Shown here piece after piece: positions 27,781-41,676 of a stretch of DNA of 64,000 nt. The DNA is from Polynucleobacter sp. MG-27-Goln-C1. Lineage in GTDB: Bacteria; Pseudomonadota; Gammaproteobacteria; Burkholderiales; Burkholderiaceae. The translations under genes were made by a program, and so were the position numbers. Location: contig NZ_JACVPM010000001.1 in the NCBI RefSeq assembly GCF_018881905.1, positions 124,001 through 188,000 of the forward strand. The letters are read 5' to 3'. Below the pieces are notes generated by a model, which searched no databases, was not told the DNA's origin, and was given only the letters and a program-made list of their open reading frames with translations. Within the stretch, counting starts at the first letter, position 1; each line of letters starts with the position of its first letter.

Positions 27781-27810
27781 AAGCCACCCTAAGGGGTGGC
27801 TTTTCTTTTT
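27781..27810 (+). terminator. plus-strand hairpin terminator with no annotated gene upstream
   Basis: AAGCCACCC (27781-27789), short loop, GGGTGGCTT (27794-27802) then TTCTTTTTG. The T run is good only on the plus strand, although the convergent lysR gene is on the minus strand and its TAG stop lies inside the hairpin. The stem core matches the terminator at 25906. Confidence 0.6.
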
Positions 27811-28770: not shown

Positions 28771-29502
28771 ATGTCCAATACAGATCTCAAAGTAAAAGTC
28801 TGGCGCGGTGCTCAAGAGGGTGAGTTTGTTGAGTATTTGGTGCCGCGAAACCCCAACCAAACGGTGCTGGATGTCGTCACCTATATTCAGCGTAAGCTGG
28901 ATCCGACTCTAAGCTACCGCTTTGCTTGTCGAGTTGGCATGTGTGGTTCTTGTGCCATGACAGTGAACGGTGTTGCTCGCTGGACATGTCGCACTCACGT
29001 TTCTCAGATTGTTGAGGGTGATTCACTAGAGATCGCCCCCTTAAATAATCTTCCCGTCATTAAGGATCTCGCAACGGATATGCGAGAGTTCTTCAATAAG
29101 TGGAAAGGCGCAGTTGGCTTCTTCAAGGGCGATAAAACACGCCATGATGATTTTGCAAAGATAGAGCCTGAATCACTGGAACGTCAACTAGCGAATGCTG
29201 GTATTGAATGTATTGGTTGTGGAGTTTGCTATTCCTCTTGTGAGGTTGTTGAAAAACGCGCTAACTATCTTGGCCCTGCGGCTCTGAATCGCGCTTGGAC
29301 ACTAACAAACGACGTGCGTGATGTACAGCAATTAGATCGCCTACGCGCTGTTGCCGGTGATGAAGGTTGCCATGCATGTCATACGCAGGGATCTTGTACT
29401 GAGCGCTGCCCTAAGAAGCTGGAGCCTACAGCCAGTATTGCCGGCCTTAAGAAATTAGTAGCCAGGGCTGCCGTGCGTGGCAGCAAATGGGGTAAGTTAT
29501 GA
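28771..29502 (+). CDS. SDH/fumarate-reductase-like iron-sulfur subunit
   Basis: A 243-residue SdhB/FrdB-like protein. The ATG at 28771 is chosen because homology begins there, although the frame is open upstream. The [2Fe-2S] ligands are Cys53, 58, 61 and 73 (CRVGMCGSC). The second domain has CIGCGVCYSSC (147, 150, 153, 157) and CHTQGSCTERCP (203, 209, 213), spaced as in SdhB; Cys200 is extra. It relays electrons from the flavoprotein to the membrane quinone. Gene order iron-sulfur, two anchors, hydratase, flavoprotein differs from the housekeeping sdhCDAB order, so this is a specialised paralogue. Confidence 0.92.
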   Translation: MSNTDLKVKVWRGAQEGEFVEYLVPRNPNQTVLDVVTYIQRKLDPTLSYRFACRVGMCGSCAMTVNGVARWTCRTHVSQIVEGDSLEIAPLNNLPVIKDLATDMREFFNKWKGAVGFFKGDKTRHDDFAKIEPESLERQLANAGIECIGCGVCYSSCEVVEKRANYLGPAALNRAWTLTNDVRDVQQLDRLRAVAGDEGCHACHTQGSCTERCPKKLEPTASIAGLKKLVARAAVRGSKWGKL

Positions 29503-29849
29503 GCCAGGGCGTATTGCAGGCAAAACTTTGGTATGCCCAAAGAATTAGTGCCATGATTTTGGGGCTCTGTGTCAGCATCCACCTCATCATTATTTTCTAC
29601 GCAATACGCGGCGGCCTCACTGCTGAAGAGATTCTTGGGCGTACGCAAGGCAATATTGCATTTGCCATTTTTTATGAAATTTTTGTTTTGGCCTGTTTTG
29701 TACATGCACCTATCGGCGTGGCTAATATTCTCGAAGAAACATTTTGCAAAGGATGTATTTCCAAGACCCTATCTTGGATTTTGGCAGCCCTCATCATCAC
29801 CCTGGGAACCACGGCAGTGATCGGTGTCTATACCGGAGGTGCTCTATGA
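29499..29849 (+). CDS. SDH-like membrane anchor subunit 1
   Basis: A 116-residue protein with three hydrophobic segments (residues ~15-37, ~53-75, ~88-110). RISAMILGLCVSIHL near the start carries an Arg-Ile-Ser and a His that match the quinone- and haem-facing residues of SdhC/SdhD-like anchors; HAPIGVANILEE is a second His site. ATG overlaps the previous stop by four bases. It probably binds quinone and perhaps haem b with the next subunit. Confidence 0.78.
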   Translation: MSQGVLQAKLWYAQRISAMILGLCVSIHLIIIFYAIRGGLTAEEILGRTQGNIAFAIFYEIFVLACFVHAPIGVANILEETFCKGCISKTLSWILAALIITLGTTAVIGVYTGGAL

Positions 29850-30205
29850 GATCTAGACCAAAGCTCGATTTACGCGCAAAGACACATCTCTCTTACTTTG
29901 CATACGCATGCCATCGTTTCTCTGGACTATTGCTGGCTTGCTTTATCCCCTTACATTTCCTAATGCTTTCTCAGTCTCTACGTGGGGCCAGTGGATTTGA
30001 GCGCTACTTGGAATTAACGGATTTTTGGGTATTCAAATTTGGTGAGTGGGCGCTAGTGATTTTATTGGCAATACATTTGGTGGGTGGAATTCGACTCATC
30101 ATGATTGAGTTTGGTCCGTGGCGCGGGCTGCGTAAGGCTTGGACCCAGGTAGCTATTTTGTTTGGCATTGCTTGCGGCCTTCTATTTTTGTATTTAGCAA
30201 ATTGA
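29846..30205 (+). CDS. SDH-like membrane anchor subunit 2
   Basis: A 119-residue protein starting MRSRPKLDLRAKTHLSYFAY at 29846, after a GGAGGT site and with a four-base overlap with the previous gene. Three membrane segments follow. HRFSGLLLACFIPLHF is the SdhC-type HRxSG motif near the quinone site, and AIHLVGGIRLIMIEFG corresponds to the haem-b His region of SdhC/SdhD. It should form a heterodimeric anchor with subunit 1 and pass electrons to quinone. Confidence 0.82.
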   Translation: MRSRPKLDLRAKTHLSYFAYACHRFSGLLLACFIPLHFLMLSQSLRGASGFERYLELTDFWVFKFGEWALVILLAIHLVGGIRLIMIEFGPWRGLRKAWTQVAILFGIACGLLFLYLAN

Positions 30206-30216
30206 TTGGGTAATTT

Positions 30217-31092
30217 ATGCAGTTGCAAATGAAAGCAGTTGAAGACGCTTGTAAAGAGCTTTATATCCGCGCCTTAAAAGTGCTCCCAGATGATGTTAAG
30301 GCGGGTATTGAGCGCTTAAACCAAGGTGAGTCGGATGCCCGCGCGCAGGTGGTGCTAAAAACCATGATCACCAATATTGCGGTTGCAGAGCGTGAGGACA
30401 ATTTACTTTGCCAGGACACAGGCCTGCCGATCTACAAAGTCAAGATTGGTCGCAATGTTCAGCTTGATGGCATGGAGCTCAAGGCAGCTATTCGTAAAGG
30501 GTGTGAGCGTGCAACCACTGAATATCCATTGCGCTCATCAGTAGTTCATCCAATCACCAGAAAAAATAACCACACCTCATGCGGCATCGATATGCCTGCA
30601 ATCAGCATCGATTTTTGTGACGATGATGAGACGCTTGAAATTGAGATGGTTCCAAAGGGAAGCGGTTCAGAAAATAATTCCTTTTTGAAGATGGCTATTC
30701 CTGCTGATGGGATTAATGGCGTTAAAGCTTTTGTTATTGAGAGTGTTGTTTCTGCTGGAGGTAAGACATGTCCCCCAACGATTGTTGGCGTTGGCGTTGG
30801 TGGCACCTCCGAGCAATGTGTTGCGATGGCTAAACGTGCGGCTACAAGGGCATTGGGTAGTGTTTGTAGTGACGAAGAAGGTGCCAAGTTAGAGCAAGAG
30901 CTAACTGCTGCTGTGAATAAATTAGGTATTGGTCCTCAAGGTTTAGGTGGTGATGGAACAGCATTTGCTGTGCATGTAGAGCTTGCTCACACACACATCA
31001 CCCTCAATCCAGTGGCAGTCAATATGCAGTGCCACTCTGCGCGTAGAGCGCGAGCAACTTTCACACCCGCTGGTGTGACTTACGGATTCTAG
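30217..31092 (+). CDS. class I fumarase/tartrate-dehydratase-like hydratase, alpha subunit
   Basis: A 291-residue protein matching the N-terminal half of class I fumarase (FumA) and the alpha subunit of L-tartrate dehydratase. The [4Fe-4S] cysteines are in DNLLCQDTG, NHTSCGIDMP and GGKTCPPTIVG. The C-terminal AHTHITLNPVAVNMQCHSAR is also characteristic. These enzymes add or remove water across an alpha,beta-unsaturated acid using the cluster as Lewis acid. Its place between SDH-like anchors and flavoprotein implies it hydrates the product of that dehydrogenase. Whether the substrate is fumarate, mesaconate or sulfoacrylate is not determined by sequence. Confidence 0.93.
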   Translation: MQLQMKAVEDACKELYIRALKVLPDDVKAGIERLNQGESDARAQVVLKTMITNIAVAEREDNLLCQDTGLPIYKVKIGRNVQLDGMELKAAIRKGCERATTEYPLRSSVVHPITRKNNHTSCGIDMPAISIDFCDDDETLEIEMVPKGSGSENNSFLKMAIPADGINGVKAFVIESVVSAGGKTCPPTIVGVGVGGTSEQCVAMAKRAATRALGSVCSDEEGAKLEQELTAAVNKLGIGPQGLGGDGTAFAVHVELAHTHITLNPVAVNMQCHSARRARATFTPAGVTYGF

Positions 31093-31100
31093 GAATAACG

Positions 31101-31712
31101 ATGGCCCATTACTACCTGCCAACCCCTGTTAGCGAAGCTGATATTCGTAAGCTACGTATTAATGACACAGTGACACTTCAAAACACTTTGTTTGGGATTC
31201 GGGATGCTACGCAGATTCACCTATTTGATAAGGGTCGGAAAACCCGCTTTGATCTTAATGGTCATGCCGTCATTCATACGGCGCCGAATGTGCGCAAGGT
31301 ACCTGTGAGTGAGGAGTTTCCAGCCGGATATCAACCCATCTGCATTGGCACCACCACCTCAGATCGAATGGAGCGCTTCACTCGACCTTTGATGACTGAG
31401 AATGGAGTGCGCATGATTGTAGGTAAGGGCGGTATGCGCGAAGGATCTGCGGCAGCCTTTCAGGAAATCGGTGGTGTTTACCTTGCGATTATTGGCGGCA
31501 CAGCGGCGCTAGAGACAACTTGGATTGAGCAAATAGAAGATGTCGATATGGATGATCTCAATCCAGAATCCCTCTGGCGCTTCAAGATTAAGGACTTTGG
31601 CCCTTTGCTAGTAGCAATGGATAGCCACGGTGGCAGCATTTATCAAGAAGTAAAAAGCGATGTTGCTCGCAATAAAGAGGCTGTATTAAAGAGCCTGGGA
31701 ATTGCATCATGA
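31101..31712 (+). CDS. class I fumarase/tartrate-dehydratase-like hydratase, beta subunit
   Basis: A 203-residue beta subunit corresponding to the C-terminal half of FumA and to TtdB. Signatures are GRDAT-like GIRDATQIHLFDKG, GTTTSDRME and the glycine-rich GKGGMREGSAAAF followed by YLAIIGGTAALE. It forms the active site with the alpha subunit. It starts 8 bases after the alpha gene and overlaps the flavoprotein ATG by four bases. Confidence 0.92.
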   Translation: MAHYYLPTPVSEADIRKLRINDTVTLQNTLFGIRDATQIHLFDKGRKTRFDLNGHAVIHTAPNVRKVPVSEEFPAGYQPICIGTTTSDRMERFTRPLMTENGVRMIVGKGGMREGSAAAFQEIGGVYLAIIGGTAALETTWIEQIEDVDMDDLNPESLWRFKIKDFGPLLVAMDSHGGSIYQEVKSDVARNKEAVLKSLGIAS

Positions 31713-33427
31713 ATATCACCACTCTTGAAACTGATATCCTGATTCTGGGTTCTGGCGGTGCAGGACTATTTGCAGCTCTACACGCACATCAAACTAATCC
31801 AGATCTTCATATCACTATTGCAGTAAAAGGACTTCTAGGTAAATGTGGCTGCACTCGGATGGTACAGGGTGGTTATAACGTTGCGCTGGCAGAAGGTGAC
31901 TCTGTTGAGCGTCACTTTATGGATACGATTGAAGGCGGTAAATGGCTATCTGATCAAGAATTGGCATGGACCTTAGTTAATAAGGCTGTCGAACGCATTC
32001 ATGAACTTGAGAATGAGCTCGGATGTTTCTTTGATCGCAATCCAGATGGAACGGTGCATCAAAAAGCATTTGCTGGGCAAACCTTTGACCGCACAGTTCA
32101 TAAGGGAGATTTGACGGGCATTGAAATTATCAGTCGATTGGCTGAGCAAGTTTGGGCGAGAGGAATTCATCGTCTTGAGGAATATCGGGCACTTGAGCTA
32201 ATTCACAGTGCTGATGGAAAGTCTCTCGCTGGAGTGCTGATGCTCAATATGCAGACTGGTGAATTCACGCTGGTACGAGCTAAGGCAGTGCTCTTGGCTA
32301 CAGGTGGCGGCCCCACAATGTATAAGTACCATACGCCTTCAGGAGATAAGAGTTGTGATGGCTTAGCTATGGCACTGCGTGCTGGTCTTACATTACGCGA
32401 TATGGAAATGGTGCAGTTTCATCCAACCGGCTTGTTAGCAGGACCTGGGACTAGGATGACTGGAACTGTTCTTGAGGAGGGGCTGCGTGGCGCGGGCGGA
32501 TATTTGCTTAATGGCAATCAAGAGCGCTTTATGGGTAACTACGATCCCCGTAATGAACGCGCTACCCGAGATATTGTTTCTCGCTCCATTAATTCTGAGA
32601 TCAGGGCGGGCAGAGCCACCCCTAATGGCGGTGTCTATATTCAGATGAGCCACCTTGGGCCTGATAACGTCCGTAAGCAATTTAAAGGCATGGTCGAGCG
32701 GTGTGCCGATAGTGGCTTTGACTTGGCTGGAGATCTTGTGGAGGTTGTTCCAACTGCACATTACATGATGGGCGGATTGATATTTAAGGCGGACTGCAGC
32801 ACCGAGTTACCAGGTTTATTTGCGGCAGGTGAAGACACTGGAGGAGTGCACGGAGCCAATCGCCTAGGTGGTAATGGCGTCGCTAACTCCACTGTATTTG
32901 GCGGTATTGCTGGTGAAGAAATGGCGAAGTGGGTTGTGTCCCACAAATTGCAAGAGTGCAATATGGATGAGGTACGCGCCAGTATCAAGGCTCATGAGGC
33001 TCCATTAGAGAGGCCCGCAGGCGATATTGAACTGATTCGCGATGCTCTGGCAGAGTGTATGTGGGATGACGTAGGTATCTCAAGAACAAAAGAGAGTTTG
33101 CTCCGAGCTCGTGCCAAGCTTGATCAGCTTGGTCAGCAGTTACATAAAATTGGTGTAGGTGATATCCAAAGAGAATACAGCATTACATGGCAGGATTGGA
33201 TGAATTTAAATAATCTGATCTTGGTAAGTAAGTCGGTAACCGAGGCTGCGCTTTCTCGTGAAAACTCTCGAGGAGCTCACTATCGCGATGATTTTCCTCA
33301 GCCCGGCTCTTTGGAGGAGTCTTATTTCACAGCAGTTCAATTGGGTGAAGATGGGTTAGACATCAAAAATAGACCAGTTCAATTTACGATGATTAAACCT
33401 GGCGAGACTATTTTGGTAGAGGCCTAA
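31709..33427 (+). CDS. SDH/fumarate-reductase-like flavoprotein with altered active site
   Basis: A 572-residue flavoprotein of the SdhA/FrdA/NadB family. FAD-binding ILGSGGAGLFAA starts at residue ~12. Catalytic positions kept relative to E. coli SdhA are His238 (QFHPTG), Glu257, Arg292 (SRSINSE), His351 (HYMMGG) and Arg385 (GANRLGG). Two changes stand out: Cys48 in GCTRMVQGG replaces the FAD-linking His, and Glu256 in VLEEGLRGAGG replaces a substrate-carboxylate-binding Thr, with about six extra residues just before it. FAD is therefore probably not linked through His, and the substrate is probably not plain succinate. The C-terminal helical domain (~420-570) is present. Confidence 0.9.
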   Translation: MNITTLETDILILGSGGAGLFAALHAHQTNPDLHITIAVKGLLGKCGCTRMVQGGYNVALAEGDSVERHFMDTIEGGKWLSDQELAWTLVNKAVERIHELENELGCFFDRNPDGTVHQKAFAGQTFDRTVHKGDLTGIEIISRLAEQVWARGIHRLEEYRALELIHSADGKSLAGVLMLNMQTGEFTLVRAKAVLLATGGGPTMYKYHTPSGDKSCDGLAMALRAGLTLRDMEMVQFHPTGLLAGPGTRMTGTVLEEGLRGAGGYLLNGNQERFMGNYDPRNERATRDIVSRSINSEIRAGRATPNGGVYIQMSHLGPDNVRKQFKGMVERCADSGFDLAGDLVEVVPTAHYMMGGLIFKADCSTELPGLFAAGEDTGGVHGANRLGGNGVANSTVFGGIAGEEMAKWVVSHKLQECNMDEVRASIKAHEAPLERPAGDIELIRDALAECMWDDVGISRTKESLLRARAKLDQLGQQLHKIGVGDIQREYSITWQDWMNLNNLILVSKSVTEAALSRENSRGAHYRDDFPQPGSLEESYFTAVQLGEDGLDIKNRPVQFTMIKPGETILVEA

Positions 33428-33438
33428 TCATTTTTGAA

Positions 33439-34182
33439 TTGATTGAGCCGGCCTCATTTGCGCTAGCAACTCTAATCGTTCTTTGCGCATTCTTCATCTT
33501 TGGAGTTTCTGGGTTTGGCTCATCAATAGTCTCTGTGCCTTTATTGGTTCAGATGTATCCGCTGAAAGTTGTAGTGCCAATGATGGTGATCATTGATATC
33601 TGCGCTTCGCTGTATGTGGGTAGAAAGTCATCTGGTGATGCCAATATTCAAGAGTTGAAGTGGCTATTTCCTTTCAGCTTAATCGGTATGGTCTTGGGGA
33701 TATTTTTATTGGTAAAGGCCCCGAGCGAGCCTTTGTTACTGATCCTTGGAATCTTTGCAGCTATTAATGGTTTGCGTGTTTTGGCTCAGAGAAATGTCGA
33801 GGCTCGAGATCCAATAAATAAATGGTGGGCAGTGCCATTTGGTTTTTTTGGCGGCGCATTTACAGCTCTTTTTGCTACGGGCGGGCCGGTATATGTCTCT
33901 TATCTAGGTTTAAGAATTAATAATCCTAAGGTACTTCGCGCAACCATGGCCTTCGCCATTTTTATGTTGACATTCTTGAGGCTTACTCTGATGTTGGTAA
34001 CCGGTCTAATCCTGAGTTGGGAGGTTATAGGCCTCGCCATTTTCTTAATGCCAGTCGCATTTTTGGGTATATGGACAGGCTCGCATGTTCATACCAAGTT
34101 GAGCAATATGTCCATGCGGATAGCCTACGGCTCTATATTGGTGTTTGCCGGTTCAATGTTGTTGCTGAGACAGCTTGCATAA
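33439..34182 (+). CDS. TauE/SafE-family anion transporter
   Basis: A protein of about 247 residues with seven to eight hydrophobic segments and the family glycine motifs (FGVSGFGSSIVSVPLLVQ near residue 20, and FGFFGGAFTALFATGGPVYV near residue 130). TauE/SafE proteins export sulfite, sulfoacetate or related anions in several sulfonate degraders. The start is uncertain: no ATG is available and a TTG at 33439 is used. It is the last gene of the LysR-linked operon, 11 bases after the flavoprotein, before a terminator. Confidence 0.88.
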   Translation: MIEPASFALATLIVLCAFFIFGVSGFGSSIVSVPLLVQMYPLKVVVPMMVIIDICASLYVGRKSSGDANIQELKWLFPFSLIGMVLGIFLLVKAPSEPLLLILGIFAAINGLRVLAQRNVEARDPINKWWAVPFGFFGGAFTALFATGGPVYVSYLGLRINNPKVLRATMAFAIFMLTFLRLTLMLVTGLILSWEVIGLAIFLMPVAFLGIWTGSHVHTKLSNMSMRIAYGSILVFAGSMLLLRQLA

Positions 34183-34205
34183 AACCATCAACCATTAGGA
34201 AATAA

Positions 34206-34233
34206 AAAAGCGAGGAAGAATCCTCGCTTTTTT
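34206..34233. terminator. bidirectional terminator
   Basis: AAAAAGCGAGGA (34206-34217), a four-base loop, TCCTCGCTTTTT (34222-34233). It separates the plus-strand operon end from the convergent Bug gene and works on both strands. Confidence 0.9.
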
Positions 34234-34250
34234 CATACTGCTATGAATCA

Positions 34251-35237
34251 TTACTGGGCACTAATATTGCGACCCTTAATCACTTTCTCCCAGTTTGCAG
34301 ACTCAGCTTTAATCTGAGCATCAAAGTCTTTCTGAGAATTCACTACTGGAGTTAAGCCGTTGAGCTCTAAACTCTTTTTCATCGCTTCTGAGCTCACTGC
34401 CTTTACCGTAGCATCGTAAATCTTATCGGTGATCGCTTTTGGAGTGTTGGCAGGGGCAATCAAGCCAAACCAGCCCGTGCTTTCAAATCCAGGAATACCA
34501 CTTTCAGCGACGGTAGGGACATCGGGAAGTTGCTTAACGCGCTTAGCACTGGTAACAGCGATCGGCTTAATTTGCCCAGTTTTTGCAAATCCAGTTGCAG
34601 CTGTCAAGTTGCCAACCATGAAATCAATTTGCCCAGCCACTAGATCATTAATGGCAGCAGACTCACCTTTATAAGGTACATGTGTTGCTGGGATATTGGC
34701 AGAGTAGGTGAGATTTTCACCAGCCATGTGCACTTGGCTGCCGATACCTGCGGAACCAAAATTGAGATCTTTAGTTTTAGCGTAGGTGATAAATTCATTT
34801 AAATTTTTAACGGGTAATTTAGTGCTTACTGACAGCAACATTGGACCGCTGGCAACGTTAGTGATGTTCACAAAATCTTTGCTGTAATTCACTGGCAATT
34901 TTTTATACAAGTTAGGGTTAACTGTGAGCATACTTCCAGAGGCAAGCATGATGGTGTAACCGTCAGCAGGTGATTGCGCTACAAATTCAGCTGCGATATT
35001 GCCGCCCGCGCCGCCTTTGTTTTCAACGATGACGTTCTGTCCTAGGTCTTTTGTTAATTGCTGAGCCAAGAGTCTGCCAAGAATATCGGTAGTTCCTCCA
35101 GCTGCAAATGGGATGACTAATTTAATTGGTTTAGTAGGCCAGGATTGCGCTGTTGCTAATTGAGGTAGTGCAAGGGTGAGTGCGCCAGCAAGTAAAACTA
35201 AACGTCTACTTAACTTATATTTCTGAATCTTCAACAT
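34251..35237 (-). CDS. Bug-family (TTT) periplasmic solute receptor
   Basis: A 328-residue receptor of the tripartite tricarboxylate transport family. A signal peptide is present (RRLVLLAGALTLALPQLATA-Q). Family hallmarks are WPTKPIKLVIPFAAGGTTD, VENKGGAGGNIAAE and GFESTGWFGLIAPA. Bug receptors typically bind carboxylates. No TctA/TctB membrane subunits are adjacent, so it is an orphan that must use a distant permease or act as a sensor. Its place between two sulfonate/dicarboxylate-type clusters suggests the pathway substrate as ligand, which is inference. Confidence 0.93.
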   Translation of the reverse strand: MLKIQKYKLSRRLVLLAGALTLALPQLATAQSWPTKPIKLVIPFAAGGTTDILGRLLAQQLTKDLGQNVIVENKGGAGGNIAAEFVAQSPADGYTIMLASGSMLTVNPNLYKKLPVNYSKDFVNITNVASGPMLLSVSTKLPVKNLNEFITYAKTKDLNFGSAGIGSQVHMAGENLTYSANIPATHVPYKGESAAINDLVAGQIDFMVGNLTAATGFAKTGQIKPIAVTSAKRVKQLPDVPTVAESGIPGFESTGWFGLIAPANTPKAITDKIYDATVKAVSSEAMKKSLELNGLTPVVNSQKDFDAQIKAESANWEKVIKGRNISAQ

Positions 35238-35539
35238 AGGTGACCTCCAGTGGAAATTTGATCTTTGTATCTTAGCTACTTAGTTATCAAAAAAATATAC
35301 TCAATTGCTATTTAATAGTTATATGCATATTCATTACTACTGTCTCCTCCACCCACTATATTGCGCCACTTTGTATTCGTTGCGCCGCACAATGAATTGA
35401 TTCTTGCAAGATATCTAAATCATCTATATGATTCAGATATGTCAGTTATTTTGTTCCCTAAAGCTAAGGCTAGTCAAGCCCTGAAAACCCTGCGTTTTGA
35501 TGGCTCGATTCTGCTTACTTTTTCCCATAGGGGGCATGC
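35238..35539. promoter_or_regulatory. divergent intergenic region upstream of the comC-suyAB cluster
   Basis: 302 bases between the Bug gene and comC. I see no convincing gene. It holds palindromes CTATTTAATAG (35308-35318) and ATATGCATAT (35321-35330) near the Bug side and a large inverted repeat at 35411-35440 near the comC side. Promoters for both divergent genes should lie here. A 60-codon TTG-initiated frame (35361-35543) spans the large repeat and is considered spurious. Confidence 0.55.
35411..35440. repeat. 30-base inverted repeat, candidate operator
   Basis: Left arm ATATCTAAATCAT (35411-35423), spacer CTAT, right arm ATGATTCAGATAT (35428-35440); 12 of 13 positions pair. It lies 100 bases before the comC start. 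It could be the binding site of the GntR regulator encoded at 38089 or a transcript hairpin. No T run follows, so a terminator is unlikely. Confidence 0.6.
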
Positions 35540-36550
35540 ATGAATCTCAGCTATCAGGAATTGCTTAATCTGGCGGATTCAGGCCTGAGGGCTGCAGGTA
35601 TTGGCGCAAAGGCGGCCCATGAAACGGCGCAATTTTTGGCTTTAGCTGAGCTAGACGGCCTTGCATCCCATGGCCTCGCACGGGTAGCTCAATATGCTGG
35701 CCATGCTAAAAATGGCCGCATTGAACTGGATCCGAAGTTGAAGGTTCGGCCATTCAAGACAGCAGCAGCATTAGTTGACGCGCGTGATGGCCTCGCTTTT
35801 CCTGCACTTCGCTTTGCTACCGACCTCTCCGTGAATTTAGCTTCAAAAAATGGCCTTGGTTTGGTGTCGGTTACCAATAGCCATCATTTTGGCGTTGCGG
35901 GTCATTACGTTGAGGCTGCTGCAAGAGCCGGCTACATCTCATTGTTATTTGGCAACACTCCAGCGGCAATGCCAATGGTTGGTGGTGCGAAAGCTATTTT
36001 TGGGACCAATCCTTTGGCTGCCGCTTTCCCAATTTCTGGTGGCGATCCTTTGGTTATCGATATGTCACTTTCTGCGGTTGCCCGCGGAAAATTATTGGTC
36101 GCAGCAAAAAATGGCCAGCAGATCCCCGAAGGTTGGGCATTGACTGCTGACGGTAAGCCAACCACTGATCCTCAAGAAGGCTTGAAGGGTCTGATGGTGC
36201 CTCTGGGCGGTGATAAAGGGGCTTTACTTGCTCTGATCGTTGAATTGCTGGTGGTCGGGCTTTCTGGCAGTAGATTTTCCTACGAGGCAGATTCTTTTTT
36301 TGATCCAAAAGGCAATCGCCCGCGGATTGGTCAGTTGATATTGACGATTGATCCTGGCTTGGCAGGCGCATCTGTTTTTGCTGCTCGAATCCAAGATTTT
36401 TTACAAGTTTTAAGTGCTGATGCTGGGACTCGTCTTCCTGGCCAGCGTCGCTTTAAGCAGCGTGCCACGGGGTTAAAAGATGGTGTCACAGTTTCAGATG
36501 TAGTTGTAGAGGAAATTCAGACTGGTATCCGCCAGTCATGGACTGAGTAG
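35540..36550 (+). CDS. comC: (2R)-3-sulfolactate dehydrogenase-like (malate/L-lactate dehydrogenase family)
   Basis: A 336-residue NAD(P)-dependent oxidoreductase of the MDH2/ComC family, distinct from Rossmann lactate dehydrogenases. The catalytic His is in VTNSHHFGVAGHYVEAAA and the substrate/cofactor loop in GTNPLAAAFPISGGDPLVIDMS. ComC interconverts (R)-sulfolactate and sulfopyruvate. The family also has malate, ureidoglycolate and other members; the sulfolactate call rests on the suyAB genes directly downstream. It would bring sulfopyruvate (for example from cysteate) into the pathway or balance stereoisomers. Confidence 0.8.
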   Translation: MNLSYQELLNLADSGLRAAGIGAKAAHETAQFLALAELDGLASHGLARVAQYAGHAKNGRIELDPKLKVRPFKTAAALVDARDGLAFPALRFATDLSVNLASKNGLGLVSVTNSHHFGVAGHYVEAAARAGYISLLFGNTPAAMPMVGGAKAIFGTNPLAAAFPISGGDPLVIDMSLSAVARGKLLVAAKNGQQIPEGWALTADGKPTTDPQEGLKGLMVPLGGDKGALLALIVELLVVGLSGSRFSYEADSFFDPKGNRPRIGQLILTIDPGLAGASVFAARIQDFLQVLSADAGTRLPGQRRFKQRATGLKDGVTVSDVVVEEIQTGIRQSWTE

Positions 36551-36582
36551 TTTTTATAAACGAGATTATTGAGGAGATAGTA

Positions 36583-36864
36583 ATGATCCACTTTGTCGTG
36601 CATGAGCCAGCAGATGGCGTAGGTGTAGTGGTAGTTGAGGGTGTTAAAGCCGGAACCGACTTGATTGGTTGGGTAATGGATGGTGACCTTACTTTAAATA
36701 TCAAATCTGAAAGTGATATTCCAATTGGTCACAAAATTTCATTGAACGATTTCAAGCCAGGTGACACGGTAATGAAATACGGCGTTGATATTGGAAAAGT
36801 GGTAGCCCCAATTAAAAAAGGTGAGCACCTCCACGTCCAAAACGTAAAAACTAAGCGCTGGTAA
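36583..36864 (+). CDS. suyA: 3-sulfolactate sulfo-lyase, small subunit SuyA
   Basis: A 93-residue SAF-domain protein, the counterpart of the N-terminal part of UxaA altronate dehydratase. It starts MIHFVVHEPADGVGVVVVEG after a GAGGAG site and includes HKISLNDFKPGDTVMKYG and a basic end (NVKTKRW). With SuyB it splits 3-sulfolactate into pyruvate and sulfite. Sequence alone could allow another UxaA-type hydro-lyase; the neighbouring sulfolactate dehydrogenase, sulfate exporter and sulfite dehydrogenase genes make SuyA by far the best reading. Confidence 0.9.
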   Translation: MIHFVVHEPADGVGVVVVEGVKAGTDLIGWVMDGDLTLNIKSESDIPIGHKISLNDFKPGDTVMKYGVDIGKVVAPIKKGEHLHVQNVKTKRW

Positions 36865-36906
36865 TCCAGCCCCCTTACCTACCTATTCATTGAGAGAGAT
36901 ATAAAA

Positions 36907-38079
36907 ATGACTAATTTGAAAGACGCAACCTTTTTAGGTTATCGCCGTGAAAACGGACGCATGGGTATTCGCAATCATGTATTGATTTTGCCTTTAGATG
37001 ACTTGTCTAACGCAGCCTGCGAAGCAGTAGCAAATAACATCAAAGGAACGATGGCAATTCCTCATTCCTATGGTCGTTTACAGTTTGGAGCTGACTTAGA
37101 TTTGCATTTCCGCACTTTGATTGGAACTGGTTGCAATCCAAACGTGGCAGCAGTAGTGGTGATTGGTATTGAGCCACAGTGGACAAAAATTATTGTCGAT
37201 GGCATCAAGGCATCAGGTAAGCCAGTTGAGGGATTCTGGATTGAAGGTAATGGCGATACAGCAACGATTGCCTCTGCCAGCAAAGCTGCATATAGCATGA
37301 TGAAGCATGCATCTAAGCAAAAACGCGTTTCTGCTCCTCTTTCAGAGTTGTGGGTTTCTACAAAATGCGGTGAATCTGACACGACTTCTGGTTGCGGTGC
37401 AAATCCAACTGTCGGCGATGCTTTCGATAAGCTTTATGGAATTGGTTCTACCTTGGTATTTGGTGAGACTACCGAATTGACTGGTGGCGAACATTTAGTT
37501 GAGGCACGTTGCCGCACTCCTGAGGTGAAGAAGAAGTTCCGTGAGATGTTTGATCGTTACCAAGATGTGATTGAGCGTCATAAGACGAGCGATCTATCTG
37601 ACTCTCAGCCAACCAAAGGCAATATTGCAGGTGGTTTAACAACCATCGAAGAGAAGGCTTTGGGCAATATCCAAAAAATCGGTAAGAAATGTATTGTGGA
37701 TAGCGTGCTTGATAAGGGTGAAGAGCCAACTATTCCTGGACTGCATTTCATGGACTCATCATCAGCTGCTGCTGAAATGGTCACCTTGTGTGCAGCTGCT
37801 GGCTTTACAGCTCACTTCTTCCCAACAGGGCAGGGTAACGTGATTGGTAATGCAATTCTTCCAGTAATTAAGATTTGCGCTAATCCAAAGACTGTTCGCA
37901 CTATGGGTGAGCATATCGACGTTGATGTGTCAGGCTTATTGCGTCGTGAAGAGAATATGGATGATGCAGGCAACAAGTTGTTAGATTGTTTGAAGCGTAC
38001 AGCCGATGGTGAATTGACTGCTTCTGAGATTCTCGGTCATCGTGAGTTTGTATTGACTCGTTTATACGAATCAGCATAA
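36907..38079 (+). CDS. suyB: 3-sulfolactate sulfo-lyase, large subunit SuyB
   Basis: A 390-residue UxaA C-terminal-type protein that carries the iron-dependent active site of the lyase. It opens with [20 protein letters not shown] and has cysteine motifs [25 protein letters not shown] and KICANPKT that can bind metal. The reaction is (R)-3-sulfolactate to pyruvate plus sulfite in the cytoplasm. Length equals known SuyB. It follows suyA by 42 bases and precedes the GntR gene by 9, so it is in the same operon. Confidence 0.92.
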
Positions 38080-38088
38080 GACTGCAGC

Positions 38089-38808
38089 ATGAGAAACCTG
38101 ACCGCTTATCAAGAAGTTAAGCAAAAGATCACCGAGGATCTGGTCAGGGGTCGCTATCCTATGGGGCAGGCATTGCCTGCCGAAAAGGATTTATCAAAAG
38201 AGTTAGATGTATCTATAGGAACCCTGCGCAAGGCGGTGGATGAGTTGGTCGCGGAAGGTATCGTGGTTCGGCGCCAAGGCAGGGGTACCTATGTTGTTGA
38301 GCATGATCTCAAAAGGCTTTTATATTATTTTTTCCATATCGTAAAACACGATGCTGAAAAAAAGGTTTACCCAAAAGTTGAACTGGTTTCCTTAAATAGC
38401 GCTTCCGCCAATAAAGAAGAGGCAGGCAAGCTGGAAATTAAAGAGGGGTCGCCTGTTTGGAGGGTGACTAATCGCCTTTCTTTGGAAGGGCAGTGCGTCA
38501 TGATCGATCAGATCACGCTAGATAAGCAAAGATTTAAAGATTTAACCCGATCGGACTTCATTGATCGTAAGGGCAGTATTTATCAGATGTATCAAATGGA
38601 ATACGGTCAGACCGTTGTGCGTAGTAGCGAGCGTTTGCGAGCTGGGCTAGCTGGTAAGCAGCATGGCGATTGGCTTGGATTGAGCCCAGATGCCCCGGTC
38701 ATTGTTATCCGAAGAGTGGCGCTCGGTATCCAGGATGAACCTTTGGAATGGCGCGTCTCCACTTTAAATACTACTCAACATGAGTATTTTAGTGAATTGG
38801 TCGCTTAG
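38089..38808 (+). CDS. GntR/HutC-family regulator
   Basis: A 239-residue regulator with an N-terminal winged helix (GQALPAEKDLSKELDVSIGT, RKAVDELVAEGIVVRRQGRG) and a UTRA ligand domain (residues ~85-235) ending in EWRVSTLNTTQHEYFSELVA. HutC-type proteins are usually repressors released by a pathway metabolite. Placed inside the suy cluster, it probably senses sulfolactate or a related compound and controls the cluster, possibly through the inverted repeat at 35411. Confidence 0.9.
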   Translation: MRNLTAYQEVKQKITEDLVRGRYPMGQALPAEKDLSKELDVSIGTLRKAVDELVAEGIVVRRQGRGTYVVEHDLKRLLYYFFHIVKHDAEKKVYPKVELVSLNSASANKEEAGKLEIKEGSPVWRVTNRLSLEGQCVMIDQITLDKQRFKDLTRSDFIDRKGSIYQMYQMEYGQTVVRSSERLRAGLAGKQHGDWLGLSPDAPVIVIRRVALGIQDEPLEWRVSTLNTTQHEYFSELVA

Positions 38809-38812
38809 TTTT

Positions 38813-39805
38813 ATGCTGACTAACACTCGAAAAAATATTCCAGGACTTTTAGTCTGCTTGGTCATCGCTATGTCGACCAGCTTTCTTTCTGAGAACTATG
38901 GTGGTCCACAGTTGTTATATGCCTTGCTGATCGGCTTATCACTTCATTTTCTATATCTCAATGAGACGGTTAAACCGGGAATCGATTTCTGCGCGAAAAC
39001 AGTTTTACGTTTAGGTGTTGCATTCCTAGGTATCCGCATTACATTTGCTGATATTGGCGCAATCGGTTGGAATACCGGGTTAATGGTGATGTTTGCCGTT
39101 GGCACGACGGTATGTCTTGGCTTCTTCCTTGCCAAGCTATTGAGGCTGTCTCCTGACTTTGGTCTGATCGCAGGTGGGTCTGTAGGCATTTGCGGGGCAT
39201 CTGCAGCTTTGGCAGTTGCCTCAGTTCTTCCAAAAACAAAAGAGAATGAGCGCTTTACTTTGCTCGTAGTGGTTGGGGTAACTGTTCTTTCAACTATTGC
39301 AATGGTGGTGTATCCCTTTGCTCTACAGTTACTCAATATTACCGATTTACCTGCAGGCATCTTTTTAGGTGCAACCATTCATGATGTTGCGCAGGTAGTT
39401 GCTGCTGGTATGTTATTTGGCCCTGAGGCGGGCGATGTAGCTACGGTTGTTAAGCTATTCCGAGTTGCGCTGCTATTGCCGGTAGTTTTATTTATTTCTA
39501 TTTTCTTTGGCGCTGAAAAATCGTCTCAACGCTTAGGTTGGGGAAGTTTGCGTCTGATACCAACCTTCCTATTAGGATTTGTTGCCTTATCTGTTGTTGC
39601 ATCCATGCAGATTTTGCCAAGCTCTATAACTCACTCTATTGGTGGCATATCTCGCTGGATGCTCGTGATTGCTATCGGCGCTGCTGGGCTAAAAACAAAC
39701 TTTCAGGAGTTAGCAAAGCTCGGCTGGCAACCGGTTGTGATGTTGGTAGTGGAAACCCTATTTATTGCTTCAATAGGCTTAATTTTTATCCTGAATCTAG
39801 CTTAA
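38813..39805 (+). CDS. YeiH-family putative sulfate exporter (SuyZ-like)
   Basis: A protein of about 330 residues with about ten membrane segments (PF03601-type). Family motifs are LYALLIGLSLHFLYLNE, AGGSVGICGASAALAVASVL and GATIHDVAQVVAAG. Members linked to sulfonate degradation (SuyZ, CuyZ) are proposed exporters of sulfate or sulfite. The ATG at 38813 is 4 bases after the GntR stop; an upstream ATG at 38780 inside that gene would add 11 residues. Confidence 0.88.
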   Translation: MLTNTRKNIPGLLVCLVIAMSTSFLSENYGGPQLLYALLIGLSLHFLYLNETVKPGIDFCAKTVLRLGVAFLGIRITFADIGAIGWNTGLMVMFAVGTTVCLGFFLAKLLRLSPDFGLIAGGSVGICGASAALAVASVLPKTKENERFTLLVVVGVTVLSTIAMVVYPFALQLLNITDLPAGIFLGATIHDVAQVVAAGMLFGPEAGDVATVVKLFRVALLLPVVLFISIFFGAEKSSQRLGWGSLRLIPTFLLGFVALSVVASMQILPSSITHSIGGISRWMLVIAIGAAGLKTNFQELAKLGWQPVVMLVVETLFIASIGLIFILNLA

Positions 39806-39810
39806 CGTCA

Positions 39811-39838
39811 TTGCCAATCAGTATTTAGTCGGTATTCT
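39811..39838 (+). promoter_or_regulatory. candidate sigma-70 promoter of soxC
   Basis: TTGCCA (39811-39816), 16-base spacer, TATTCT (39833-39838), 52 bases before the soxC ATG. An AAGGTGAG ribosome binding site lies just before the gene. It implies that the sulfite-oxidation pair may be transcribed independently of suyAB. Confidence 0.45.
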
Positions 39839-39890
39839 CTAAAAAATGCGTTCTTAATTGATGCGTGTATTTTAAAAAGGTGAGCTACCT

Positions 39891-41150
39891 ATGTCGGACA
39901 AAAGCAATATTTCTAACCGTCGTAAATTTCTTAAAAATTCTGCTGGTGTAGGTGCGAGCCTTGGTGCTGCAATGGTCTCTGGCAATGCCTTAAGTCAAAC
40001 CTCACCCAGTGAATTTTTGGAAGTTGATCCATGGACCAAGGTGCAGGGTTCGACTTTCATTAATCCACCTTATGGATTGCCTTCAAAATACGAGAAGAAT
40101 GTAGTTCGAGTCTTGCCATCTCCTGCCCCAACATTTTTAACTGGATCGCGGACGCCATTGCAAAACCTGCATGGCATCATCACGCCAAATGGACTCTTCT
40201 TTGAGAGGCATCACGCTGGCGTGCCGGATATTAATCCCGATCAGCATCGCTTAGTCATTCATGGCATGGTGGATAGACCTCTGATGCTATCCATGGAAGA
40301 CATTGTTCGGTTCCCATCGGAATCTCGTATTTATTTTCTAGAGTGCTCTGGCAATAGTGCCGCTGAGTTAAAAAAGGCAAGCGGTAAAACTGCCCAAGAG
40401 ATCCATGGGCTACTTTCTTGTTGTGAGTGGACTGGAGTTCGTTTATCTACCATTCTTCAGGAGTGTGGAGTTCAACCAGGTGCTACATGGGCTTTAGCGG
40501 AAGGTGCGGATGGGGCTGCAATGACTCGAAGTATTCCGATGAGCAAGATGATGGACGATGCTTTATTGGTATATGCCCAGAATGGTGAGATGTTACGAGC
40601 GGAGCAAGGATATCCACTGCGCCTTTTCTTGCCGGGATTTGAAGGCAATATGAGTATTAAGTGGTTAAGACGGATTAAATTAGGTACCGAGCCCTGGCAA
40701 ACACGTGAAGAAACGTCTGCTTATACCGACTTACAAAAGGATGGCAAGGCTCAGCAATTTACGTTTGCAATGGACGTGAAGTCTGTTATTACGCAACCAT
40801 CCGGCATGATGAAGCTCAAGTCCAAGGGATTCTATGAGGTTTCGGGTGTTGCTTGGTCTGGCAATGGAAAAATTAAAAAGGTTGAGGTATCAACCGATGG
40901 CGGAAAGTCTTGGGGTGATGCCATTTTGCAAGAGCCGGTCATGGATAAGTCTTTGGTGCGCTTTCGCTATCCCTGGGTTTGGAATGGTGAACCGACAGTG
41001 TTTATGAGTCGAGCGATCGACTCTAGTGGTGATACTCAGCCAAGCATGGAAGCTTTATTAAAAGTGAAGAGCCCTAATAGTTTTTATCACAACAATGCAA
41101 TTCAGCCATGGCGTGTTGCTGCTAACGGGGAGATTACAAATGGTCGTTAA
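39891..41150 (+). CDS. soxC: SoxC-type sulfite dehydrogenase, molybdopterin subunit
   Basis: A 419-residue sulfite-oxidase-fold enzyme. A twin-arginine signal is visible (SNRRKFLKN, then AGVGASLGAAMVSGNALSQ), so it is exported folded with its molybdenum cofactor. The Mo-ligand Cys is in YFLECSGNSAAE (Cys152), and HGLLSCCEWTGVRLSTILQE, LPGFEGNMSIKWLRRI are SoxC hallmarks. A C-terminal dimerisation domain follows residue ~300. Without SoxXYZAB nearby it probably oxidises free sulfite from SuyAB in the periplasm, passing electrons to the cytochrome encoded next. Confidence 0.92.
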   Translation: MSDKSNISNRRKFLKNSAGVGASLGAAMVSGNALSQTSPSEFLEVDPWTKVQGSTFINPPYGLPSKYEKNVVRVLPSPAPTFLTGSRTPLQNLHGIITPNGLFFERHHAGVPDINPDQHRLVIHGMVDRPLMLSMEDIVRFPSESRIYFLECSGNSAAELKKASGKTAQEIHGLLSCCEWTGVRLSTILQECGVQPGATWALAEGADGAAMTRSIPMSKMMDDALLVYAQNGEMLRAEQGYPLRLFLPGFEGNMSIKWLRRIKLGTEPWQTREETSAYTDLQKDGKAQQFTFAMDVKSVITQPSGMMKLKSKGFYEVSGVAWSGNGKIKKVEVSTDGGKSWGDAILQEPVMDKSLVRFRYPWVWNGEPTVFMSRAIDSSGDTQPSMEALLKVKSPNSFYHNNAIQPWRVAANGEITNGR

Positions 41151-41676
41151 ATCTTTTGTGAAACTTCCTCTAGCCATAGCATTGGCTGGGGTTTTAGCGG
41201 CATGTACCAGCGGATATCACACGACTGGACCAGTTGGCCTTGGTAAGCCAGTTACTGAAAACCAAATCAAAGCGTGGAATATTGACATTGGCCCAAGCGG
41301 TGCAGGTTTACCGGCCGGATCTGGAACGGCTGCAACAGGTGAAATTATTTATCAGCAAAAATGTTCATCCTGTCATGGTGATAAGGGGCAGGGTGGAATT
41401 GCTAATCGATTGGTTGGTGGAGGCCAGCTTAATACAGATAAGCCAGTTAAGACAGTAGGTAGTTTTTGGCCTTACTCCACAACTATATTTGATTACGTAA
41501 GAAGAGCTATGCCGCATCAAGCTCCGCAATCACTCACCGATGATCAGGTGTATGCCTTAACTGCTTATATCTTATATATGAATAAGATTGTTTCAAAGGA
41601 CGAGGTAATGAATGCGAACTCATTGCCGTTGGTAAAGATGCCAAATCGAGATGGATTTATTCCGATCGTAAAGTAG
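41140..41676 (+). CDS. SoxD-like monohaem cytochrome c lipoprotein
   Basis: A 178-residue protein starting at ATG 41140, overlapping soxC by 11 bases. The signal ends in a lipobox (LAAC at residues ~19-22), so it is probably lipid anchored. One haem motif CSSCH is present with a distal Met in AMPHQAPQSL. GLGKPVTENQIKAWNIDIGPSG and PVKTVGSFWPYSTT resemble the N-terminal haem domain of SoxD, but the second SoxD domain is missing. It accepts electrons from SoxC. Confidence 0.88.
   Translation: MVVKSFVKLPLAIALAGVLAACTSGYHTTGPVGLGKPVTENQIKAWNIDIGPSGAGLPAGSGTAATGEIIYQQKCSSCHGDKGQGGIANRLVGGGQLNTDKPVKTVGSFWPYSTTIFDYVRRAMPHQAPQSLTDDQVYALTAYILYMNKIVSKDEVMNANSLPLVKMPNRDGFIPIVK

What the first reader, a model, noticed from the sequence alone, without database searches (positions are those of the whole stretch)
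28771..41676. Candidate 3-sulfopropanoate degradation system: SDH-like dehydrogenase and fumarase-like hydratase feeding SuyAB
Two adjacent clusters fit end to end. The first encodes a complete succinate-dehydrogenase-like complex interleaved with a two-subunit class I fumarase-like hydratase and a TauE/SafE transporter. The second encodes a ComC-like dehydrogenase, SuyAB, a sulfate exporter candidate and SoxC with a cytochrome. Replace one carboxylate of succinate by sulfonate and the first cluster would do 3-sulfopropanoate to sulfoacrylate to 3-sulfolactate, the SuyAB substrate. Stereochemistry agrees: the spatial equivalent of (S)-malate, the normal fumarase product, is (R)-sulfolactate because the CIP priorities swap, and SuyAB uses the R form. 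3-Sulfopropanoate is a known end product of homotaurine use by some Burkholderiales. The SuyAB and sulfite-oxidation half is established biochemistry; the upstream half is inference. Methylsuccinate/mesaconate or another succinate analogue is the main alternative.
Basis: partly seen in the sequence, partly recalled or inferred. Interest (0 to 1): 0.93.

Follow-up and report, generated by a model that had tools for sequence, protein, structure and literature searches.

The report
Sulfonate-tuned "Krebs" enzymes for 3-sulfopropanoate
A bacterium most likely of the genus Polynucleobacter carries a spare succinate-dehydrogenase-like complex and a spare fumarase-like enzyme beside genes named for breaking down sulfolactate, and the spare enzymes are predicted to turn the sulfur compound 3-sulfopropanoate into sulfolactate, which would supply candidate genes for a route so far reported only as chemistry.

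Summary
In detail: one operon encodes SdhB-SdhC-SdhD-FumA-FumB-SdhA-TauE, the next ComC-SuyA-SuyB-GntR-YeiH-SoxC-cytochrome. The host also has an ordinary SdhA and a second class I fumarase gene, so this set is extra. In 299 Burkholderiaceae genomes the window-type module (type I, 28 genomes) co-occurs with SuyB in 28 of 28, within 13 kb in 26; SuyB is in 25 of 262 genomes without a module. Forty random stretches of module-bearing contigs gave no SuyB or TauE hit. The same dehydrogenase family lies about 19 kb from SuyAB in Rhodococcus jostii, and occurs in Roseovarius nubinhibens ISM, reported (second hand, from a thesis) to pass 3-sulfopropanoate through sulfoacrylate and sulfolactate. A further finding: a second module type keeps the dehydrogenase (median 62-65% identical) but has a different hydratase (32-35%), has SuyB nearby in only 3 of 105 loci, and in one subgroup sits beside malonate-semialdehyde dehydrogenase. 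That suggests a second route in which hydration itself releases sulfite.

The parts
27789..28688 (-). LysR-type regulator, divergent from the operon
   Evidence: Pfam HTH_1 and LysR_substrate; LysR marker near 24 of 28 type I modules against 1 of 40 random stretches
28771..29502 (+). SdhB-like iron-sulfur subunit
   Evidence: TIGR00384 186 bits, cut-off 88
29499..29849 (+). SdhC/D-like membrane anchor 1
   Evidence: Pfam Sdh_cyt
29846..30205 (+). SdhC/D-like membrane anchor 2; start placed at the ATG that overlaps the previous stop
   Evidence: Pfam Sdh_cyt; TIGR02970 60 bits, cut-off 52.3 (run from 29834, four codons upstream); ATG checked
30217..31092 (+). FumA-like hydratase alpha subunit with the KGxGSEN motif (type I)
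   Evidence: PRK06246 312 bits, cut-off 276; motif in 29 of 29 type I rows
31101..31712 (+). FumB-like hydratase beta subunit
   Evidence: Pfam Fumerase_C; TIGR00723 140.2 bits, just under its cut-off 145.15
31709..33427 (+). SdhA-like flavoprotein of the family described: FrdA His44 position is Cys48, Thr244 position is Glu256
   Evidence: Pfam; below the cut-off of each of the 25 models listed; residue counts
33439..34182 (+). TauE/SafE transporter, likely sulfonate or sulfite transport (TTG start)
   Evidence: Pfam TauE 104.8 bits; enriched near modules
34251..35237 (-). TctC-type substrate-binding protein, candidate 3-sulfopropanoate uptake
   Evidence: Pfam TctC; TctC marker near 19 of 28 type I modules, 3 of 40 random
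35540..36550 (+). ComC/Ldh-family dehydrogenase, sulfolactate dehydrogenase candidate
   Evidence: Pfam Ldh_2 321 bits; best NCBIfam is sulfolac_dhydr 213 bits, below cut-off 500
36583..36864 (+). SuyA, small subunit of sulfolactate sulfo-lyase
   Evidence: weak match to the N-terminal part of galactarate dehydratase (30.7 bits), no Pfam match; assigned by its place next to SuyB
36907..38079 (+). SuyB, large subunit of (2R)-sulfolactate sulfo-lyase
   Evidence: Pfam GD_AH domains; close homologues carry this name in JGI; 74.6% identical to a protein on a Cupriavidus pinatubonensis plasmid
38089..38808 (+). GntR/UTRA regulator
   Evidence: Pfam GntR and UTRA
38813..39805 (+). YeiH-family sulfate exporter candidate (start moved to the ATG after the GntR stop)
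   Evidence: Pfam PF03601 229 bits; TIGR00698 138 bits, below cut-off 232.6 (run from 38780)
39891..41150 (+). SoxC-type sulfite dehydrogenase
   Evidence: TIGR04555 612 bits, cut-off 420
41140..41676 (+). c-type cytochrome partner
   Evidence: Pfam Cytochrome_CBB3 47 bits

Best explanation
The window encodes a second, divergent succinate-dehydrogenase-like complex and a two-subunit fumarase-like hydratase next to SuyAB, and together they are predicted to carry 3-sulfopropanoate through sulfoacrylate to (R)-3-sulfolactate, which SuyAB would then split into pyruvate and sulfite. Shown by sequence and survey: the genes, their operon order, their linkage to SuyB and TauE, and their presence beside the host's own ordinary SdhA and a second fumarase gene. 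Inferred: TctC and/or TauE import the sulfonate; the complex passes two electrons to quinone; the hydratase binds the carboxylate end at its iron-sulfur cluster and puts OH on C2, giving the R product directly; SoxC with its cytochrome oxidises sulfite and YeiH exports sulfate.
For: Co-occurrence: SuyB (70% identity or more) in 28 of 28 genomes with the window-type module, 26 within 13 kb; 25 of 262 genomes without any module. Random stretches of module-bearing contigs: SuyB 0 of 40, TauE 0 of 40. The family recurs with SuyAB elsewhere: Methylobacterium oryzae; Rhodococcus jostii RHA1, with SuyBA about 19 kb and ComC-like, HADH-like and YeiH-like genes within about 24 kb; Paracoccus versutus, where the module, two sulfolactate-dehydrogenase-like genes, an HpsNOP-like trio, SuyAB, exporter and sulfite oxidase lie within about 35 kb. 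Of 18 plasmid records with the dehydrogenase and 13 with SuyB, out of 72,556, six are the same record. R. nubinhibens ISM carries the family and is reported to use 3-sulfopropanoate > sulfoacrylate > sulfolactate (second hand). The host has its own SdhA (TIGR01816 866 bits, cut-off 727) and another class I fumarase-family gene. The FrdA Thr244 position is Glu in 138 of 138 rows while H232, R287, H355 and R390 positions are kept (residue roles recalled). The window cluster lacks the HADH-type second sulfolactate dehydrogenase seen in 20 of 28 type I stretches, as expected if the R form is made directly.
Against: No activity is known for any member. The flavin-linking His of SDH/FRD is Cys in 137 of 137 rows with a residue there; in E. 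coli FrdA loss of that His is recalled to cost succinate oxidation more than fumarate reduction, so the direction could be reversed unless Cys forms a linkage or potentials differ. A Glu in place of the carboxylate-binding Thr is not an obvious way to hold a sulfonate. Twenty of 28 type I stretches do have the second dehydrogenase that racemises sulfolactate, which the R-specific hydratase would make needless there. Type II modules are mostly without SuyB nearby (3 of 105; 3 of the 81 with at least 8 kb on both sides). YeiH and sulfite-oxidase markers are near few type I modules (5 and 2 of 28). The archaeal neighbours are weaker support than they look: their UxaA-family protein is only 35-37% identical to the window's SuyB, no closer than the 40% paralogues I did not count as SuyB. 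Genomes surveyed are related, so counts are not independent.
Confidence: 0.68

Rival explanations
1. The complex and hydratase act on another succinate analogue, such as methylsuccinate to mesaconate to citramalate, and SuyAB is a neighbour for other reasons.
For: Nine of 90 type IIb loci, R. nubinhibens among them, have a family III CoA-transferase marker hit; in R. nubinhibens it lies between FumA and FumB, and its best models are succinate-glutarate and mesaconate CoA-transferases, both below cut-off.
Against: Type I: 0 of 28 loci with that CoA-transferase, SuyB 26 of 28, TauE 22 of 28. The Paracoccus and Rhodococcus islands are C3-sulfonate islands. No citramalyl-CoA lyase was recognised by eye in the R. 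nubinhibens stretch, but no family search for it was run.
Confidence: 0.1
2. The module runs in reverse: sulfolactate is dehydrated to sulfoacrylate, which the complex reduces to 3-sulfopropanoate as an electron sink.
For: Missing flavin-linking His, as in flavoproteins that work as reductases (the link to direction is recalled).
Against: SuyAB, SoxC-cytochrome and the exporter in the window point to catabolism that ends in sulfate; the R. nubinhibens report runs in the oxidative direction.
Confidence: 0.08
3. An ordinary duplicate of succinate dehydrogenase and fumarase serving the Krebs cycle or tartrate use.
For: Fold families, and FumA meets the fumarate hydratase model PRK06246.
Against: SdhA-like is below the cut-off of each listed model while the host's own SdhA meets TIGR01816; family-wide changes at the active site; linkage to sulfonate genes.
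Confidence: 0.06
4. 3-Nitropropanoate or 3-sulfinopropanoate is the substrate of part of the family, above all type II.
For: Both are succinate analogues (recalled); a nitroreductase-family marker is near 21 of 105 type II loci, and MmsA, a malonate-semialdehyde consumer, near 12 of 105.
Against: TauE near 67 of 105 type II loci; Bradyrhizobium Ec3.3 and Methylobacterium nodulans have SoxC-type sulfite dehydrogenase, exporter and TauE beside the module.
Confidence: 0.08

Closest known systems
Succinate dehydrogenase / fumarate reductase (complex II)
   Same: FAD and iron-sulfur subunits, two anchors; H232, R287, H355, R390 (FrdA numbering) kept
   Different: His44 position is Cys, Thr244 position is Glu, Glu250 position is Ala (137 of 138); below the curated cut-offs listed
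Class I fumarase, two-subunit type (PRK06246; solved relative 7xky)
   Same: Alpha and beta halves, KGxGSEN motif; alpha meets PRK06246
   Different: Encoded inside the dehydrogenase operon; beta just short of TIGR00723; substrate predicted to be sulfoacrylate
SuyAB sulfolactate pathway (C. pinatubonensis JMP134, P. pantotrophus NKNCYSA; as described in PMC6278857 passages)
   Same: SuyAB, sulfite dehydrogenase, exporter
   Different: Sulfolactate would come from 3-sulfopropanoate instead of DHPS or cysteate
R. nubinhibens ISM homotaurine route (Mayer thesis, cited in PMC11489063)
   Same: Same intermediates proposed
   Different: Genes not named in the passages I saw; this strain has a type II module and Xsc, and no SuyB hit
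Bacterial coenzyme M enzymes XcbC/XcbD
   Same: ASL-superfamily enzymes of sulfonate chemistry (sulfoacrylate as intermediate is recalled)
   Different: The archaeal ASL-like protein is below the XcbC cut-off (260 of 575) and meets argH (323, cut-off 279.5)

Membership tests
Succinate dehydrogenase (SdhA) | Curated NCBIfam SdhA/FrdA score | tested here: not met
   TIGR01812 440.6 of 567.3; TIGR01816 347.9 of 727.35; the host's own SdhA 866
Succinate dehydrogenase (SdhA) | Flavin-linking histidine | tested here: not met
   Cys in 137 of 137 rows with a residue; the 80 loci came from a scan in which one of two patterns covered this stretch, so for them it is partly selected
Succinate dehydrogenase (SdhA) | Catalytic H232, R287, H355, R390 | tested here: met
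   138 of 138 rows each (roles recalled)
Complex II | Iron-sulfur subunit and membrane anchors | tested here: met
Class I fumarase | Alpha subunit model and KGxGSEN motif | tested here: met
   PRK06246 311.7 of 276; motif in 29 of 29 type I rows
Class I fumarase | Beta subunit model | tested here: inconclusive
   TIGR00723 140.2 of 145.15; Pfam Fumerase_C well over its cut-off
Class I fumarase | Acts on fumarate | not testable with these tools
   needs assay
SuyAB | Separate small and large UxaA-type subunits, close homology to SuyB of sulfolactate users | tested here: met
   74.6% to a C. pinatubonensis plasmid protein (strain not identified)
SuyAB (archaeal neighbours) | Close homology to SuyB | tested here: inconclusive
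   35-37% to the window's SuyB; galactarate-dehydratase model 147 of 731
SuyAB | Cleaves (R)-sulfolactate | not testable with these tools
   needs assay
SoxC sulfite dehydrogenase | TIGR04555 cut-off | tested here: met
   612.1 of 420
Sulfolactate dehydrogenase ComC | NF040650 cut-off | tested here: not met
   212.7 of 500

The most novel reading that the evidence does not exclude
One sulfopropanoate dehydrogenase, three hydratases, two fates. In the type II modules the hydratase (KGGLFG instead of KGxGSEN in 104 of 104 rows) binds sulfoacrylate the other way round and adds water to the sulfonate-bearing carbon; the resulting alpha-hydroxysulfonate falls apart into sulfite and malonate semialdehyde, which MmsA turns into acetyl-CoA. 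This would be a new way of breaking a C-S bond: desulfonation by regio-flipped hydration, with no sulfo-lyase.
Probability: 0.27. Interest if true: 0.92.

Novelty: new variant of a known kind. Interest (0 to 1): 0.78.

Why it matters
3-Sulfopropanoate is made from homotaurine and by gut sulfoglycolysis, and PMC11489063 (passages) says that its bacterial degradation had not been reported before, apart from a thesis; the same paper finds that Bilophila can respire it, and PMC12890257 (passages) calls that mechanism unclear. Named candidate genes make the aerobic route testable in sequenced strains. It would show Krebs-cycle enzymes re-tuned from a carboxylate to a sulfonate, with deeply different hydratases recruited to one dehydrogenase, and would give a marker to trace this compound in genomes. 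The type II variant, if right, would add a desulfonation chemistry beside SuyAB, Xsc and CuyA.

Tried and rejected
MmsA as a general partner: rejected, 0 of 28 type I and 0 of 90 type IIb loci; only the type IIa set. That set of 14 was drawn after I had seen the markers, and in the tree it is not one clade, so 12 of 14 is not an independent count; the unselected figures are 12 of 105 type II loci and 9 of 17 type II stretches against 0 of 40 random.

TPP enzyme near some modules as Xsc: rejected, 158-175 bits against cut-offs of 676 and 620.

SuyB at 63% identity or more is in 17 of 51, two more (G226, G251) have only a 40% paralogue, 32 have no hit at E 1e-60. Xsc is over its cut-off in 44 of 51, so most could use the Xsc route and the type II hypothesis is not forced. 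Three genomes (loci L061, L069, L073) have neither; the CuyA superfamily model (TIGR01275, wider than CuyA) has no hit for L061, one over cut-off for L069, two below it for L073.

Archaeal SuyAB: I first took the UxaA-family pair of Natribaculum and Haloarcula as SuyAB. One search shows 35-37% identity to the window's SuyB, so this is left open; I lowered the main confidence from 0.70 to 0.68 for it. In some searches the archaeal loci carry a SuyB label only because their own protein was among the markers. A wider archaeal survey was not possible.

Weak markers: of the 12 type II loci with a sulfite-oxidase-type hit, nine are at 29-33% identity and may be other molybdenum proteins, and two are the loci that the marker came from; three of the 12 YeiH hits are likewise their own markers.

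Literature: sulfoacrylate occurs in 2 held papers, 3-sulfopropanoate with dehydrogenase in 3, 3-sulfopropionate in 7; further searches. I saw passages of PMC11489063, PMC5592240, PMC12890257, PMC11659671, PMC6278857 and PMC11382572, and listings of the rest. None of what I saw assigns genes to this step, but most subscription papers are not held and the thesis was not seen.

Rows dropped: proteins with internal stops and hits covering half of the marker or less were left out; SdhA has 138, FumA 134, FumB 99 of 139 loci. 24 of the 105 type II loci have under 8 kb on one side or the other. The tree used 84 rows, a part of those; one of its two outgroup rows (L002) was translated on the wrong strand by mistake, so its root is not to be trusted. 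Searches do not use that row in the alignments.


Full report
Anatomy. The first operon (28771-34182, plus strand) encodes SdhB, two Sdh_cyt anchors, FumA, FumB, SdhA and TauE, with 4-base overlaps at three junctions, and a divergent LysR gene in front. A TctC-type binding protein lies on the other strand (34251-35237). The second cluster (35540-41676) encodes a ComC-family dehydrogenase, SuyA, SuyB, a GntR regulator, a YeiH-family exporter, SoxC and a cytochrome. Kinship: three same-genus genomes have contigs of exactly the lengths of Polynucleobacter contigs in the protein database, so the host is most likely a Polynucleobacter.

The set is extra. The host has an ordinary SdhA (TIGR01816, 866 bits, cut-off 727) and an ordinary NadB, a second class I fumarase-family gene, and a FumC-like protein (474 bits over a partial stretch, cut-off 665). 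The window's SdhA-like protein misses the cut-off of each of the 25 models listed (of 36 matched).

Survey. One search found the SdhA-like family in 37 of 299 Burkholderiaceae genomes (E up to 1e-150) and in 11 of 398 genomes across the phylum (E up to 1e-140). Neighbourhoods fall into two orders. Type I, as in the window: B-C-D-FumA-FumB-A. Type II: B-C-D-A-FumA-FumB. Among the 37 genomes, 28 are type I and 9 type II. SuyB at 70% identity or more is in 28 of 28 type I genomes, 26 within 13 kb; in the two others (G219, G233) the module lies on a contig that ends close by, and in G219 a partial SuyB match is in the stretch. For type II it is 7 of 9 anywhere, 1 within 13 kb. Without a module it is 25 of 262. 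Fisher p for module against SuyB is 5e-27, but the genomes are related.

Control. Forty random stretches of 19.7 kb from 40 module-bearing contigs, against 28 type I and 17 type II stretches, given as random of 40, type I of 28, type II of 17: SuyB 0, 26, 1; TauE 0, 22, 12; ComC/Ldh 0, 23, 1; HADH 0, 20, 1; TctC 3, 19, 9; LysR 1, 24, 5; TPP enzyme 0, 11, 4; MmsA 0, 0, 9; YeiH 0, 5, 0; sulfite-oxidase type 0, 2, 1. These are marker hits at set identity limits, not proofs of function.

Distant relatives. Methylobacterium oryzae has the type I order with two UxaA-family genes (SuyB 66% identical to the window's), TauE and dehydrogenase candidates. Rhodococcus jostii RHA1 pRHL1 has SdhB-SdhA-FumA-FumB and, within about 24 kb, ComC-like, HADH-like, SuyBA (59%) and YeiH-like genes. 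Paracoccus versutus pTAV3 has a type II module and, within about 35 kb, two sulfolactate-dehydrogenase-like genes, a histidinol-dehydrogenase/SDR/alcohol-dehydrogenase trio that resembles HpsNOP, SuyAB, a sulfate exporter and a sulfite oxidase (the HpsNOP naming is my inference from PMC11382572 passages). Natribaculum and Haloarcula plasmids carry SdhA-like and SdhB-like genes with TauE, two UxaA-family genes and, in place of the fumarase, an ASL-family protein. That protein scores 323 bits on argH (cut-off 279.5) and 260 on XcbC (cut-off 575), and the UxaA protein is only 35-37% identical to the window's SuyB, so both archaeal roles are inferred from position alone.

Literature link. PMC11489063 (passages) says that a Konstanz thesis reported homotaurine use by R. 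nubinhibens ISM through 3-sulfopropanoate, sulfoacrylate and sulfolactate. The same strain was among the 80 named loci (L067). PMC6278857 (passages) says this strain breaks sulfolactate by way of sulfopyruvate and Xsc; searches agree: no SuyB hit, one Xsc over the cut-off.

One dehydrogenase, several hydratases. Median identity to the window is 65% (IIa) and 62% (IIb) for SdhA, but 35% and 32% for FumA and 25% for FumB. Columns with different majority residues in type I (90% or more) and IIb (85% or more): 22 in SdhA, 72 in FumA, 60 in FumB. The KGxGSEN motif is in 29 of 29 type I rows and in Rhodococcus; all 104 type II rows (14 IIa, 90 IIb) have KGGLFG. In the SdhA tree type I is one side of a branch with SH-aLRT 90 (root not reliable). 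In SdhA, the FrdA positions T244 and E250 are Glu (138 of 138) and Ala (137 of 138), the flavin His is Cys (137 of 137), and the four catalytic residues are kept.

Type II. SuyB is near 3 of 105 loci of that gene order and TauE near 67; among the 81 with at least 8 kb on both sides of SdhA it is 3 and 57. The 105 include Rhodococcus, whose hydratase is canonical and whose SuyB lies beyond the 10-kb flank, as does that of Paracoccus versutus is not among the 105 misses explained otherwise: its SuyB is about 21 kb away. In the IIa set (Cupriavidus, Pseudomonas MPC6, Methylobacterium nodulans and a relative; drawn after seeing the markers) MmsA is near 12 of 14 and an Amidohydro_2 protein near 13 of 14; in Pseudomonas MPC6 MmsA starts at the FumB stop. 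M. nodulans and Bradyrhizobium Ec3.3 have SoxC-type sulfite dehydrogenase, exporter and TauE beside the module and no SuyB marker there; the Bradyrhizobium genome gave no SuyB or Xsc hit at the limits used. These facts suggest, but do not show, that type II hydration itself releases sulfite. Against it: the R. nubinhibens report names sulfolactate although its module is type II; 44 of 51 type II genomes have Xsc; IIb has no MmsA marker nearby (0 of 90).

Verdict. The dehydrogenase step, the hydratase step and their stereochemistry remain untested.

Noticed in passing
L034:13415-14905; L194-L201, L040, L045, L204: Methylmalonate/malonate-semialdehyde dehydrogenase gene beside these type II modules; basis of the regio-flipped hydration idea.
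   Followed up: partly
L067:12747-13892: In R. nubinhibens a family III CoA-transferase gene lies between the two hydratase subunit genes; the same marker is near 9 of 90 type IIb loci. Role unexplained.
   Followed up: partly
L035:20149-21722, L113:14991-17633: Sulfolactaldehyde-reductase-like (L035) or alcohol-dehydrogenase (L113) genes with succinate-semialdehyde-dehydrogenase-like genes beside the module, perhaps feeding 3-sulfopropanoate from 3-hydroxypropanesulfonate.
   Followed up: no
L036:14353-14667, L073:13439-13756: NIPSNAP-family gene next to some type II modules (12 of 105 loci); role unknown.
   Followed up: no
L047:13691-14530: Amidohydro_2 protein next to 13 of 14 type IIa modules; no NCBIfam match.
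   Followed up: partly
G269 and G241 (L168, L171): Two same-genus relatives show one in-frame stop within the SdhA match, and L168 also shows split FumA and TauE matches: possible decay or sequencing errors.
   Followed up: no
L039:5500-6996, L043:5434-6935: Archaeal UxaA-family pair beside the dehydrogenase, too divergent from SuyAB to name; could be a new sulfonate lyase or an unrelated dehydratase.
   Followed up: partly
L120: Record titled Oceanobacillus holds an SdhA that groups with alphaproteobacterial rows; the label is probably wrong.
   Followed up: no
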